Below the pieces are notes generated by a model. That model saw only the letters and a program-made list of their open reading frames with translations, had not been told where the DNA came from and ran no database searches. Of a stretch of 64,000 nt of DNA, positions 24,197 through 55,372 are shown in pieces. The DNA is from Falsochrobactrum tianjinense (lineage in GTDB: Bacteria > Pseudomonadota > Alphaproteobacteria > Rhizobiales > Rhizobiaceae): the NCBI RefSeq assembly GCF_019100495.1, contig NZ_JAHRVA010000007.1, positions 10,223-74,222 on the forward strand, written 5' to 3'. How positions within the stretch are numbered: position 1 is the stretch's first letter; every line of letters starts with the position of its first letter. A program made the position numbers and the translations under genes.

Positions 24197-24258
24197 GATG
24201 TTTCCTATCCTCTCAGATAGCACGCGCCTCGTTGGGGAAGCGTGGCCCACTGATGAAA
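24197..24258 (-). promoter_or_regulatory. Structured 5' leader of serC (serC RNA motif candidate)
   Basis: On the minus strand CACGC...GCGTG (24240-24244 with 24221-24225) is followed directly by CTATC-TGAGAG-GATAG (24216-24220 with 24205-24209), then GAAAC and the start codon. Two adjacent hairpins just before the start match what is described for the serC motif of alphaproteobacteria, a cis-regulatory leader found upstream of serC. The ribosome binding site lies in the second stem, so occlusion is a plausible mechanism. Ligand, if any, is unknown. Confidence 0.6.
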
Positions 24259-39640: not shown

Positions 39641-40210
39641 TTATGAGGCGCCGAAAGCAGTCTTGAGCAAGACGATCTGCTCCGAAACCGGATTGCCGCC
39701 GGAATGGCCTTGTAGAGAAACGACTTCGCCATAGACATTGCGGTCCATGCGACGCACACGGGACTGCAAACCTATCGAACGCTCGATAAGTTCGATGAAG
39801 TCCTCAGGCAACTCGCTCCAACCCGCTGCAGCTTCGCCCGCGGAAGGCGTATCGAGACGGATCTTGGATTTTTCGGCGGCGATCTGCTGGCGTGTCATCT
39901 CGCCGTTGCGCGCGGCGCGCTGCAATAGAAGCCACGAAGCGACCTGCATGAGACGCGTGGTCAGGCGCATTGATTCGGCCGCATAAAGCGTGGCCGCCAC
40001 CCGCGAGAGATTGCGCGCATTTTCGCGCCCCTCGCCGTCGAGATAGCTCGCGGCTTCCTCGACCATATCCATGCCTTCACCGTAAATCGGCTTGAAGGAG
40101 TCCGAGAAGACCATACGCTCGGCGAGGCTGATCATATTGCCCGGCATTTGTCCCTGTTCGCTAATCACTGCTCTGCCACCTTGCATAGCCGCGACAGGCG
40201 GCCAATCCAT
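39641..40210 (-). CDS. rcdA: RcdA-like protein (DUF1465)
   Basis: 189 residues as the longest frame. The conserved core begins around MISLAERMVFSDSF, so the true start may be one of several in-frame ATGs up to residue 26. DUF1465 includes Caulobacter RcdA, a three-helix dimer that is an adaptor for ClpXP degradation of CtrA and other substrates in the cell cycle. Visible core: DMVEEAASYLDGEGRENARN and ESMRLTTRLMQVASWLLLQR. It lies upstream of ruvC on the same strand, separated by 109 bp. The CtrA link is inferred from family. Confidence 0.82.
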   Translation of the reverse strand: MDWPPVAAMQGGRAVISEQGQMPGNMISLAERMVFSDSFKPIYGEGMDMVEEAASYLDGEGRENARNLSRVAATLYAAESMRLTTRLMQVASWLLLQRAARNGEMTRQQIAAEKSKIRLDTPSAGEAAAGWSELPEDFIELIERSIGLQSRVRRMDRNVYGEVVSLQGHSGGNPVSEQIVLLKTAFGAS

Positions 40211-40411
40211 TGCCCGCTTCCGCGCAATGCGGAGGCGAAATACTCATCGAACTTCTGTTCGATCATGGAGACGCTCAAGACGGAACAGGCAGATCAGATG
40301 AGTCCACGATAAACTGCACCTTCATGCACTGTGGCGCAAGTTTATGTTTAACGTTCGGTTAATATTTCACGGCTGTTTTGAAAGGATGGCGGGAACCGAC
40401 CTATTTTCGCC
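40211..40411. other. Intergenic DNA between the small RNA candidate and rcdA
   Basis: AT-rich stretches around 40320-40380 are compatible with the rcdA promoter. No gene or strong structure is seen. Confidence 0.3.
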
Positions 40412-40515
40412 CATAAAAAAAGAGCCGCAAAGGCGGCTCTCAGGAGTTTAACAGGGAGGCGTCAAACAGAGTGGCTAAACCACTCGGTAAGAATCCAGCC
40501 GAACTGGATGTAAAC
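40412..40515 (-). ncRNA. Candidate trans-acting small RNA
   Basis: On the minus strand: hairpin ATCCAG-ttcgg-CTGGAT (40493-40509), hairpin GAGTGG-tttag-CCACTC (40469-40485), a single-stranded CGCCTCCCTGTTAAACTCCTG, and a strong intrinsic terminator AGAGCCGC-ctttg... closing at 40421-40440 with seven T. No reading frame precedes this terminator, and the opgC-type gene upstream already has its own terminator at 40597-40618. The unpaired CUCCC next to the terminator hairpin is the anti-ribosome-binding-site design of alphaproteobacterial small RNAs such as the AbcR type. The 5' end is estimated. Confidence 0.55.
40414..40440 (-). terminator. Orphan intrinsic terminator (3' end of small RNA candidate)
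   Basis: AGAGCCGC (40421-40428) pairs with GCGGCTCT (40433-40440). The minus strand continues with TTTTTTTATGG. It is about 194 bp beyond the nearest minus-strand gene, which has another terminator. Confidence 0.8.
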
Positions 40516-40596
40516 CATTTAAAGCGATTAAGATTAATGAAAAGTTAATATCGTAAAATACAGTGGAATAATTCCGCGAAACATCGTTCTCAGTAA

Positions 40597-40618
40597 AAAG
40601 CCGCCCAGAGGCGGCTTT
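40597..40618 (-). terminator. Terminator of the OpgC-family gene
   Basis: AAAGCCGCC (40597-40605) pairs with GGCGGCTTT (40610-40618), loop CAGA. The minus strand continues TTACTGAG after five T. It starts 16 bp after the stop codon. Confidence 0.85.
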
Positions 40619-40633
40619 CTAGATGGGGAGCCA

Positions 40634-41836
40634 TCACACTTGCGGCAATACCTGCTTGGGCCGATTGGCGAGCGGCGCTTTCGCAGCTGCGGCAATTATT
40701 GCGGGTATGGGTTTGGCGGCGGGCTTCTTGCCCCAGCCGATGCTCGGCAGCCATTCAAGGTAATAGGCCAGAGCGAACTGCATCACCACACCGGTTGCAA
40801 TCAGCAGCGTGTCATAGGGCAGGCCGCCCGGATTTACGAGCTTCATCACCTGCGCCACCATCGCAAGCAACGTGCCGGCGATGAAAACGGGAAGCGAATG
40901 CTTGCCCAGAATGGCCAACGGATTGTGCGGCGCAGTCCGGGCAATGCTGTTGAGCGTCGGAACCACCGCAATCAGATAAGCTATCGCCAGCACATGCAGC
41001 AGACGCGGCGCGGACAGGAATGTCTTGTCGAAACCGGTGAGCACGGCGGGCATGCCCATCGACGCATCGATTCCCCAAAGCGGAATGCGAACCCAGGCAA
41101 GCGACAGCACCAGATAGCCGACGGCCACAGCGATCAACGCAGGATGCGCGAACAGCTTGCCGCCACGGCGCACATGCATCGTACCGGCAACGCCGATAGC
41201 GAACACGAACTGCCATGAAAACGGATTGAGAAACCATACGCCTTCCGTCGGATAATTGATCGGCGCAAAATGATAAAGTCCCGACAGCAGCCAGACCGCA
41301 CCCGATACGCCCAGCATCAGGAACAGATTGACGCGTGCCAGCAAAAGCATCAGCGGCGTCATCAAAAGCAGCACGGCATACATGGACAGGATATTATTAT
41401 AGCCAAGCTGATGGCCGAGCGTGACCAGACCCAGCAGGGCCTCCACCGGCTGCTTGACGAGCGGGCCGATATTGATCTGACTGAGAAGCTCGCCATGCTT
41501 GAGGAAGATGGCGGCGGCGGCGAATATGCCGATCGTGGCCAATGTCGTCATGATATGTGCCGTATAGAGCACACCGGCGCGCCGCCACATTTTCAGCGAC
41601 AGCAGCAAGCGGTTGCCTGGAGCAAATTTACTGCCATAGGCGAGCGCCACGGCCATGCCGGAGATAAGCACGAAAGCTTCGGCCGAGTCCGAAAAACCCA
41701 GATTCTTATGGGTGAAATGCTCGTAAACCGTTCCCGGAATATGATTGATGAAAATGGTCAGCAGCGCCAGTGCGCGGAAGACGTCAATGCGTGTATCCCG
41801 CCCTTGCGGCACCGTTTTTGCCGTTTCAATCGTCAT
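40634..41836 (-). CDS. opgC: OpgC-family membrane protein (periplasmic glucan succinylation)
   Basis: 400 residues, about ten membrane helices. The N-terminal signature RIDVFRALALLTIFINHIPG and FSDSAEAFVLISGMAVALAY are those of the OpgC family, an acyltransferase-like group. OpgC adds succinyl groups to osmoregulated periplasmic glucans. In Brucella and Rhizobium the equivalent (Cgm-type) protein modifies cyclic beta-1,2-glucan. It is monocistronic. The family may hold several paralogues, so assignment to the glucan modifier itself is not certain. Confidence 0.78.
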   Translation of the reverse strand: MTIETAKTVPQGRDTRIDVFRALALLTIFINHIPGTVYEHFTHKNLGFSDSAEAFVLISGMAVALAYGSKFAPGNRLLLSLKMWRRAGVLYTAHIMTTLATIGIFAAAAIFLKHGELLSQINIGPLVKQPVEALLGLVTLGHQLGYNNILSMYAVLLLMTPLMLLLARVNLFLMLGVSGAVWLLSGLYHFAPINYPTEGVWFLNPFSWQFVFAIGVAGTMHVRRGGKLFAHPALIAVAVGYLVLSLAWVRIPLWGIDASMGMPAVLTGFDKTFLSAPRLLHVLAIAYLIAVVPTLNSIARTAPHNPLAILGKHSLPVFIAGTLLAMVAQVMKLVNPGGLPYDTLLIATGVVMQFALAYYLEWLPSIGWGKKPAAKPIPAIIAAAAKAPLANRPKQVLPQV

Positions 41837-55207: not shown

Positions 55208-55372
55208 AGGAAGCGGCGACCACGACAGCCGATGGAAGAGATTGATCCCGGGAACCTACAAAGTAGGTGGGCGCCATATGCGAAAGCCCACGGGCCTCCA
55301 CAGGGATAGCTCCCTTTAAGATCAATAAGGCCCCGGGGATGCTATTACTCCTGTCGGGAAGCGCAGTTCGCC
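55208..55372 (-). ncRNA. ssrS: 6S RNA
   Basis: Between zapA and ygfA, where 6S RNA lies in most proteobacteria. The 5' and 3' parts form a long irregular helix (CGACAG at 55351-55356 on the minus strand with CTGTCG from 55223-55228), enclosing an open central bubble. An internal hairpin GCCCACCTACTTTGTAGG (about 55254-55271) is typical of the rhizobial form. TTATAT at about 55379-55384 could be its -10 box. It mimics an open promoter and sequesters RNA polymerase. The ends are approximate. Confidence 0.85.

What the first reader, a model, noticed from the sequence alone, without database searches (positions are those of the whole stretch)
40412..40515. Orphan terminator and hairpins point to an unannotated small RNA next to opgC
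Two intrinsic terminators of similar sequence lie on the minus strand beyond the OpgC-type gene. The first (40597-40618) ends that gene; the second (40414-40440) has no gene before it. The 75 nt in front of it fold into two tidy hairpins and leave a single-stranded CCUCCC...ACUCC able to pair with ribosome binding sites. This is the classic layout of Hfq-type trans small RNAs in Rhizobiales. The likeness to AbcR-type RNAs is from memory.
Basis: partly seen in the sequence, partly recalled or inferred. Interest (0 to 1): 0.7.

Follow-up and report, generated by a model that had tools for sequence, protein, structure and literature searches.

The report
CtrA-boxed small RNA beside rcdA
The proposed small RNA is real and belongs to a known but uncharacterised family, and it turns out to sit beside the cell-cycle gene rcdA behind a deeply conserved candidate binding site for the master regulator CtrA, which suggests that it is a cell-cycle-controlled regulator.

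Summary
The orphan terminator does end a small RNA gene. It is a member of a known family, Rfam RF02356 (BjrC1505; 78.7 bits, cut-off 50), and is probably the counterpart of S. meliloti SmelC671/sm84, an RNA detected there, for which I found no function. It is not AbcR. Three hairpins show compensatory changes across 51 diverse sequences. The core TTTGACGCCTCCCTGT hardly varies, and its CCUCCC lies in a predicted loop. Two things were not in the finding. First, the conserved neighbour is not opgC but rcdA, the adaptor for CtrA proteolysis (adjacent in 34/34 distinct genus loci and 122/129 others). Second, the promoter region carries TTAA-N7-TTAA, the CtrA box, at a nearly fixed place (34/34 in the genus; 145/149 elsewhere with at most one mismatch, against about 14 in shuffles). 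Where the RNA lies apart from rcdA, the box stays with it. I conclude that it is a trans-acting, CtrA-controlled anti-Shine-Dalgarno sRNA. It may also explain why CtrA binds the 'rcdA promoter' of S. meliloti without affecting rcdA mRNA. Expression in this organism, CtrA binding and targets are inferred; predicted pairing with ctrA, gcrA or rcdA here does not exceed background.

The parts
40415..40511 (-). BjrC1505-family small RNA, predicted transcript of 97 nt (5' end inferred)
   Evidence: RF02356, 78.7 bits over 40415-40555; near-constant from ATCCAG (40509) to the T run in 35 genus rows; fold z -7.0; S. meliloti SmelC671 is given as 100 nt
40534..40548 (-). CtrA box TTAACTTTTCATTAA (TTAA-N7-TTAA), -37 to -23 if the start is 40511
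   Evidence: 34/34 distinct genus loci; 145/149 others with at most 1 mismatch; shuffles mean 14.4; one of 15 distinct TTAAC-N6-TTAA sites in the genome
40517..40522 (-). -10-like hexamer TTAAAT
   Evidence: sequence and position relative to the box; inferred
40493..40509 (-). hairpin 1
   Evidence: 99.3% of cells paired, 3 of 6 pairs with changes on both sides
40469..40485 (-). hairpin 2 (GAGTGG/CCACTC)
   Evidence: 100% of cells paired, 3 of 6 pairs with changes on both sides
40446..40467 (-). predicted hairpin 3 with loop CCUCCC (40459-40454), within the nearly invariant core
   Evidence: MFE; inner pairs kept but without covariation, outer pairs often broken
40415..40441 (-). intrinsic terminator of the sRNA
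   Evidence: 99.1% of cells paired, 2 pairs with changes on both sides
40348..40362 (.). second CtrA box TTAACGTTCGGTTAA (near-palindromic), between the sRNA terminator and rcdA
   Evidence: 32/34 genus loci, 25/149 others exact
39641..40168 (-). rcdA, protease adaptor for CtrA; likely start GTG 40168 (inferred; ORF open from 40210)
   Evidence: NF051867 208 bits, cut-off 170; PDB 3ctw RcdA 1.8e-32; AAGGTGG before GTG kept in many genus rows
40592..40618 (-). terminator of the opgC gene
   Evidence: sequence; GCCGCC/GGCGGC hairpin near this place in 20 of 35 genus rows
40634..41836 (-). OpgC-type membrane protein gene
   Evidence: PF10129, 356.5 bits; upstream neighbour in 36 of 36 genus loci, 5 of 152 others

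Best explanation
A small RNA gene of the BjrC1505 family (RF02356), transcribed on the minus strand from about 40511 to 40415 by a promoter with a CtrA box where a -35 element would lie, so that its synthesis follows active CtrA in the cell cycle. The RNA has two covarying hairpins, a nearly invariant core that is predicted to show CCUCCC in a small loop, and a terminator. It most likely acts in trans by pairing the loop with G-rich Shine-Dalgarno regions of mRNAs. Shown here: family membership, conserved structure, conserved CtrA box, linkage to rcdA, survival of RNA and box where that linkage is lost. Inferred: transcription in this organism, CtrA binding, pairing mechanism, targets. Suspected but not shown: feedback on the CtrA circuit, which would make it a Hyphomicrobiales analogue of Caulobacter CcnA.
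For: Rfam match far above cut-off, and over cut-off in 55 of 60 genomes drawn as relatives, own included. Covariation in hairpins 1, 2 and 4 (8 pairs, 30 cells; shuffles 2.6 and 4.3). The box spacing is specific outside the genus: N7 70/149 exact, other spacers 0-4. CtrA is in the genome (420 bits, cut-off 350); three of the other TTAAC-N6-TTAA sites lie before a flagellin gene, a PdhS-like kinase gene and a response regulator gene 8 kb from the flagellin. RcdA lies elsewhere in four genomes whose sRNA keeps the core, with the box exact in two and 1 mismatch away in two. A 98%-complete genome without a detectable RcdA (G052) has two copies, each with an exact box. In S. meliloti, SmelC671/sm84 was seen by deep sequencing and at ~80 nt (PMC2873474, PMC2573895, PMC7011215; passages), and CtrA bound the rcdA promoter region while rcdA mRNA did not respond to CtrA depletion (PMC4433202, passages).
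Against: No transcript data for this organism. In Bradyrhizobium-type genomes the box is TTTA-N7-TTAA, one mismatch. TTAAC-N6-TTAA is not enriched in the whole genome (25 strand hits, control 27), and most of the genes next to the other sites have no known cell-cycle role. No target found: apart from the gene itself the best complement of a 15-nt core stretch in the genome has 3 mismatches, and the control does better (55 hits against 85); ctrA, gcrA and rcdA rank at 0.50, 0.43 and 0.30-0.42 of control genes. Hairpin 3 has no covariation. Both G052 copies have lost the CCCTGT part of the core. The S. meliloti link rests on position, size and distribution, not on its sequence.
Confidence: 0.7

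Rival explanations
1. It is the 5' leader of rcdA: the CtrA-box promoter serves rcdA, the hairpins and terminator form an attenuator, and read-through makes the rcdA mRNA.
For: Same strand, with the RcdA match beginning 144-647 nt after the core, in 34/34 and 122/129 distinct loci. Agrobacteria show several TSSs for rcdA, with CtrA sites further upstream than in Caulobacter (PMC10469942, section 10).
Against: In G085 rcdA lies 338 kb away; in G183, G044 and G051 it is on another contig while the sRNA contig goes on without it; the core and box persist there. G044 and G051 are fragmented, 84% and 88% complete. G052 has the RNA but no detectable RcdA. The terminator is strong and conserved. In this genus a second CtrA box stands between the terminator and rcdA in 32/34 loci. 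S. meliloti shows a discrete 80-100 nt RNA.
Confidence: 0.15
2. An ordinary trans sRNA with a housekeeping promoter; the TTAA-N7-TTAA is an AT-rich promoter feature or the site of another regulator.
For: Valverde et al. enter s70 as the promoter of sm84 (PMC2573895, table passage). A conserved GCTTT directly after the box (70 of the 145 non-genus loci with a box) is unexplained. In the genus other spacers also score (5, 6, 11 and 12) because a third TTAA is conserved.
Against: Outside the genus only spacer 7 stands out; a control stretch 85 nt further up has 0 exact in 34 + 149 loci. The S. meliloti table shows no sigma motif for SmelC671, unlike many other sRNAs in it (PMC7143759, Table 1 passage).
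Confidence: 0.2
3. AbcR-type or other Hfq-dependent sRNA.
For: Similar general layout with a C-rich anti-Shine-Dalgarno element; a weak sub-threshold likeness to mmgR (23.5 bits, cut-off 41).
Against: No AbcR family in the Rfam searches; the sequence is a clear RF02356 member. Hfq binding is unknown.
Confidence: 0.03
4. A small protein of 18 codons (MVYIQFGWILTEWFSHSV) is the conserved product.
For: Open in the window.
Against: Intact in 19 of 35 genus members only; start codon lost or frame broken in the rest; covariation favours RNA.
Confidence: 0.01

Closest known systems
BjrC1505 (Rfam RF02356)
   Same: Full-length covariance match, same hairpins, core and terminator; the Bradyrhizobium altum member L036 scores 133.9 bits
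   Different: The Rfam model starts about 44 nt further upstream and so takes in what I read as the CtrA-box promoter. I saw only the title and consensus of the family entry
SmelC671 / sm84 of Sinorhizobium meliloti (ReC71 in R. etli)
   Same: 100-nt intergenic RNA with terminator; family spread over Rhizobiaceae, Brucellaceae, Phyllobacteriaceae, Bradyrhizobiaceae, Methylobacteriaceae (PMC3927594, passages); lies 14.2 kb from 6S RNA, as RF02356 does in many relatives (within 35 kb in 28 of 40 genomes, 12 of them in the opposite orientation as in S. meliloti)
   Different: Identity not tested on sequence; its flanks are given only as SMc03988 and SMc03989, and I could not confirm that SMc03989 is rcdA
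CcnA of Caulobacter crescentus
   Same: ncRNA with a predicted CtrA site in its promoter and a C-rich loop for G-rich leader motifs; raises CtrA even when expressed in S. meliloti, where no clear homologue was detected (PMC8959179, section 12 and passages)
   Different: CcnA lies at the replication origin and binds ctrA and gcrA leaders; RF02356 has no match in the Caulobacter control genome, and predicted pairing with ctrA and gcrA here is average
EcpR1 (SmelC291)
   Same: Conserved Rhizobiales sRNA acting on cell-cycle mRNAs through a conserved loop (PMC4414408, abstract and passages)
   Different: Different locus (divK-pleD / rpmG) and a separate family
AbcR / alpha-r15
   Same: Anti-Shine-Dalgarno style (recalled)
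   Different: No Rfam match

Membership tests
BjrC1505 (RF02356) | Covariance score over the gathering cut-off (50 bits) | tested here: met
   78.7 bits, model 1-140
BjrC1505 (RF02356) | Consensus hairpins and terminator | tested here: met
   the 5' third of the model fits poorly in sequence
BjrC1505 (RF02356) | Expressed RNA | not testable with these tools
   No transcript data held for this genome
SmelC671/sm84 | Same gene by sequence | tested here: inconclusive
   No S. meliloti chromosome identified among the loci; position relative to 6S, length and taxonomic spread agree
AbcR (alpha-r15) | Match to an AbcR/alpha-r15 model | tested here: not met
   Not among Rfam matches at gathering or at E up to 1
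mmgR (RF00519) | Score over cut-off 41 | tested here: not met
   23.5 bits
CtrA-activated promoter | Conserved TTAA-N7-TTAA upstream of the predicted start | tested here: met
   with spacer, shuffle and upstream controls
CtrA-activated promoter | CtrA binds and drives transcription | not testable with these tools
   Only indirect: ChIP binding at the rcdA promoter region in S. meliloti (PMC4433202)
CcnA | CtrA site in promoter and C-rich loop | tested here: met
   (loop predicted, no covariation)
CcnA | Pairs with ctrA and gcrA leaders | tested here: inconclusive
   Duplex energies at 0.50 and 0.43 of control genes, so no support; a crude test of -30 to +9 only
CcnA | Sequence homology to CcnA | not tested
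   No CcnA sequence was fetched
Hfq-dependent trans sRNA | Binds Hfq | not testable with these tools
   No binding data

The most novel reading that the evidence does not exclude
BjrC1505/SmelC671 is the CtrA-activated, cell-cycle-phased sRNA of the Hyphomicrobiales, a counterpart of CcnA. CtrA switches it on, and its CCUCCC loop feeds back on the CtrA circuit by covering ribosome binding sites (rcdA in Bradyrhizobium-like lineages, where the RBS GAGGCGTTAA pairs with ACGCCUC). The CtrA binding and the extra upstream TSSs assigned to rcdA in rhizobia and agrobacteria belong to this RNA.
Probability: 0.3. Interest if true: 0.8.

Novelty: new member of a known kind. Interest (0 to 1): 0.58.

Why it matters
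The S. meliloti family was modelled in 2011 and I found no regulator or function for it (searches named under Tried and rejected). A CtrA box conserved across the order at its promoter, beside the gene for the CtrA proteolysis adaptor, places it in the cell-cycle circuit. It gives a concrete reason why CtrA binds the rcdA promoter region in S. meliloti without changing rcdA mRNA (PMC4433202), and a candidate for the CcnA-like RNA that was sought there and not clearly detected (PMC8959179). Both can be tested in S. meliloti. It also suggests that the Rfam model includes promoter sequence at its 5' end.

Tried and rejected
AbcR membership: no Rfam match. EcpR1: I first suspected it from memory; the paper shows another locus. 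Small ORF: intact in 19 of 35.

Target search: a 15-nt complement of the core in the own genome gave 55 hits at up to 3 mismatches, the gene itself included, against 85 for the reversed pattern, so nothing stands out. First test of rcdA pairing: 93 rcdA starts paired better than 1187 other ORFs (median -14.8 against -12.3 kcal/mol; genus p 5e-4, others p 2e-6; GAGGCGT in 8 of 93 against 8 of 1187), but many rcdA starts were wrongly picked and strong Shine-Dalgarno sites alone would give such a result, so I do not rest on it. Second test: the real seed against 200 random seeds that kept CCTCC; genus median percentile 0.415 (1 of 29 at or under 0.05), others 0.26 (30 of 145 at or under 0.05, of which 18 have the Bradyrhizobium-like GCGTTAA). 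So an effect in part of the order, not in this genus. A few rows also have doubtful starts (for example L004, L109). ctrA and gcrA: average (first took a wrong ORF for gcrA and one search corrected it). Their control set is the 1187 ORF starts, chosen mechanically.

Second RF02356 matches in G018 and G020 (32-38 bits) showed no core; that in G058 (57.7 bits) keeps GACGCCTCCCTGTT, but the genome is listed with 6% contamination. No match in the plasmid collection. Brucella literature: one paper on Bsr sRNAs, whose text as I saw it (outline and passages) gives no positions, and others seen only as a listing, so I cannot say whether this RNA has been seen there. Not found in print: CtrA control of, or a function for, BjrC1505/SmelC671 (paper searches only, in an open-licence library; supplements not available).

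Counting notes: one search counts loci (177 of 185 with RcdA downstream), with G021 and several order-level genomes held twice; one search gives distinct loci. One search's core search (up to 4 substitutions in 23 nt) found 216 of 218 loci; L199 and L213 were left out of later counts, so core invariance is partly by selection. TTTGACGCCTCCCTGT is exact in 213 of those 216, and in 93 of 96 when the loci fetched by a core pattern are set aside. Further divergent cores exist (L199, L213, L267, L273, L274). Searches kept only distinct loci with enough flank (183 and 163 of 216). The alignment uses 51 of 73 thinned sequences, themselves limited to at most 2 errors in the core; truncated or odd ones were left out. 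The 40 genomes were picked by me for long contigs.

Full report
What is there. A scan of the window against Rfam gives four matches; one is RF02356, BjrC1505, at 40415-40555 on the minus strand with 78.7 bits against a cut-off of 50, and it stays the only family over its cut-off when the 261-nt locus is scanned at E up to 1. So the RNA is real in the sense of a conserved family, and it is already described as one. AbcR is not among the matches; mmgR is far below its cut-off (23.5 against 41).

Extent and structure. In 35 genomes of the genus (one locus each) the sequence is nearly constant from ATCCAG (40509) to the T run of the terminator and variable after it; upstream lies a second conserved block, read below as the promoter. 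The 97-nt predicted RNA folds at -39.3 kcal/mol, z -7.0: hairpin 1, hairpin 2, a third hairpin with CCUCCC in its loop, and the terminator. In an alignment of 51 divergent sequences, hairpins 1, 2 and 4 are paired in 99-100% of cells with 3, 3 and 2 pairs changed on both sides; the totals (8 pairs, 30 cells) exceed all 500 shuffles (means 2.6 and 4.3). Hairpin 3 has inner pairs in nearly all rows, no covariation, and outer pairs that often fail, so it is possible but unproven. TTTGACGCCTCCCTGT is exact in 93 of the 96 core-bearing loci that were not fetched by a core pattern; those 96 had been required to match 23 nt with at most 4 substitutions, and two loci, and some fetched later, have diverged cores.

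Distribution. RF02356 is found at E <= 0.001 in 57 of 60 genomes drawn as relatives (55 over cut-off), 156 of 199 drawn from the family (110 over cut-off), and 10 of 115 drawn from the class (5 over cut-off), the own genome counted each time. None of 14 control genomes, Caulobacter among them, has it.

The conserved neighbour is rcdA. The DUF1465 gene downstream is RcdA: NCBIfam equivalog NF051867 at 208 bits (cut-off 170), and the solved RcdA structure 3ctw at 1.8e-32. RcdA lies downstream on the same strand in 34 of 34 distinct genus loci and 122 of 129 distinct other loci with at least 1.5 kb of downstream DNA; the match begins 144-647 nt after the core. OpgC is upstream in 36 of 36 genus loci but in only 5 of 152 others.

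The promoter region has a CtrA box. At 40548-40534 the minus strand reads TTAACTTTTCATTAA. In the 85 nt upstream, TTAA-N7-TTAA is present exactly in 34 of 34 distinct genus loci and 70 of 149 other loci, and with at most one mismatch in 145 of 149. For the 149, shuffles give 0.96 exact and 14.4 with at most one mismatch, and the adjacent 85 nt further up give 0 and 2; other spacers give 0-4 exact. In the genus, spacers 5, 6, 11 and 12 also score (7-25 exact) because a third TTAA is conserved there. TTAA-N7-TTAA is the CtrA motif reported for Methylosinus (PMC12403871, passage), close to that of S. meliloti (TAA-N7-TTAAC; PMC3616915, passage). In the window the motif occurs three times (0.39 expected), and two of the three flank this RNA. 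In the genome TTAAC-N6-TTAA occurs at 15 distinct places, 25 strand hits against 27 for the reversed control, so the motif alone is not evidence. Of the other places one precedes a flagellin gene, one a PdhS-like cell-division kinase gene (849 bits over the first half of the model; the locus cuts the gene, so the 2000-bit cut-off cannot be judged) and one a response regulator gene 8 kb from the flagellin; others precede genes with no known cell-cycle role (a cysteine proteinase, a phosphatase, a META-domain protein, a Crp-type regulator and an ABC transporter, a CAAX protease-like gene) or no clear gene. CtrA itself is encoded (420 bits, cut-off 350). The box ends 11 nt before a -10-like TTAAAT, which would put it over the -35 region; that such placement is typical of CtrA-activated promoters is recalled knowledge.

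Trans RNA or rcdA leader. The linkage makes a cis leader a serious rival. Against it: in G085 rcdA lies 338 kb from the RNA, and in G183, G044 and G051 on another contig (G044 and G051 are fragmented); the RNA keeps its core there, and its box is exact in two and one mismatch away in two. G052 shows no RcdA at E <= 0.001 (98% complete) but has a 63.5-bit and a 43.8-bit match, each with an exact box, although both have lost the CCCTGT part of the core. In this genus a second box stands after the sRNA terminator (40348-40362) in 32 of 34 loci, so rcdA may have its own. I therefore prefer an independent gene, with the rival at 0.15.

Link with published data. S. meliloti SmelC671/sm84 is a 100-nt RNA at 2986421-2986520 (PMC2873474, table passage), detected at ~80 nt, between SMc03988 and SMc03989 on the same strand as both (PMC2573895, table passage; PMC7011215, passage). 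Its family was modelled in 2011 with members from Rhizobiaceae to Bradyrhizobiaceae and Methylobacteriaceae, ReC71 of R. etli among them, and extensive microsynteny (PMC3927594, section 2.3 and passages). Its 6S RNA lies 14.2 kb away on the other strand (Table 1 of PMC7143759, passage); in 40 genomes that I picked for long contigs RF02356 lies within 35 kb of 6S RNA in 28, in 12 of these on the other strand. I regard identity as very likely but not tested. CtrA ChIP-seq in S. [quoted passage not shown] Agrobacteria have several TSSs for rcdA, and CtrA sites predicted further upstream than in Caulobacter (PMC10469942, section 10). Both observations fit an unrecognised CtrA-driven sRNA promoter upstream of rcdA. 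In Caulobacter, CcnA, with a predicted CtrA site, uses a CCCC loop on GGGG motifs of the ctrA and gcrA leaders, and raises CtrA in S. meliloti although no clear homologue was detected there (PMC8959179, section 12 and passages).

Mechanism. The C-rich loop is complementary to Shine-Dalgarno sequences, so sequestration of ribosome binding sites is the natural reading, but I found no convincing target. For rcdA, the real core pairs better than CCTCC-keeping random cores in part of the order (30 of 145 non-genus loci at or under the 5th percentile; 18 of these 30 have the Bradyrhizobium-like GCGTTAA) but not in this genus (median 0.415, 29 loci). For ctrA and gcrA the energies are average. The step 'acts back on CtrA' is therefore a hypothesis.

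Organism. The genome (3.5 Mb, 20 contigs) is not named. The only Brucella-named locus compared was B. endophytica, 75% identical over 5 kb; Brucella/Ochrobactrum kinship is an inference from that and from the genome sizes in the genus.

Verdict. Observation confirmed; interpretation partly right; the RNA belongs to a known family. The new part is the conserved CtrA box and the rcdA linkage, which give the family a likely regulator and make two open discrepancies testable.

Noticed in passing
40348-40362: A second, near-palindromic CtrA box between the sRNA terminator and rcdA, exact in 32 of 34 genus loci but in 25 of 149 others: rcdA and the sRNA may be separately CtrA-controlled here.
   Followed up: partly
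non-genus loci (L002 to L178 and others), upstream of the sRNA: In 70 of the 145 non-genus loci with a box, its second TTAA is followed directly by GCTTT, conserved across families and unexplained.
   Followed up: partly
40512-40555 (RF02356 model positions 1 to about 44): The 5' part of the Rfam model falls on the CtrA-box promoter region here, so the model may include untranscribed DNA.
   Followed up: partly
55214-55372: 6S RNA (RF00013, 70.5 bits) about 14.7 kb from the sRNA; in 28 of 40 genomes the two lie within 35 kb, but their relative orientation differs between lineages.
   Followed up: partly
24200-24252: serC leader (RF00517, 59.3 bits).
   Followed up: no
L266:1919-2061: Second RF02356 copy (57.7 bits) in genome G058 with GACGCCTCCCTGTT but different 5' hairpins; paralogue or contamination.
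   Followed up: partly
L032 and other Bradyrhizobium-like loci, rcdA start: rcdA ribosome binding site GAGGCGTTAACCATG, complementary to ACGCCUC of the sRNA core and also containing TTAACCAT, like a CtrA half-site, at the start codon.
   Followed up: partly
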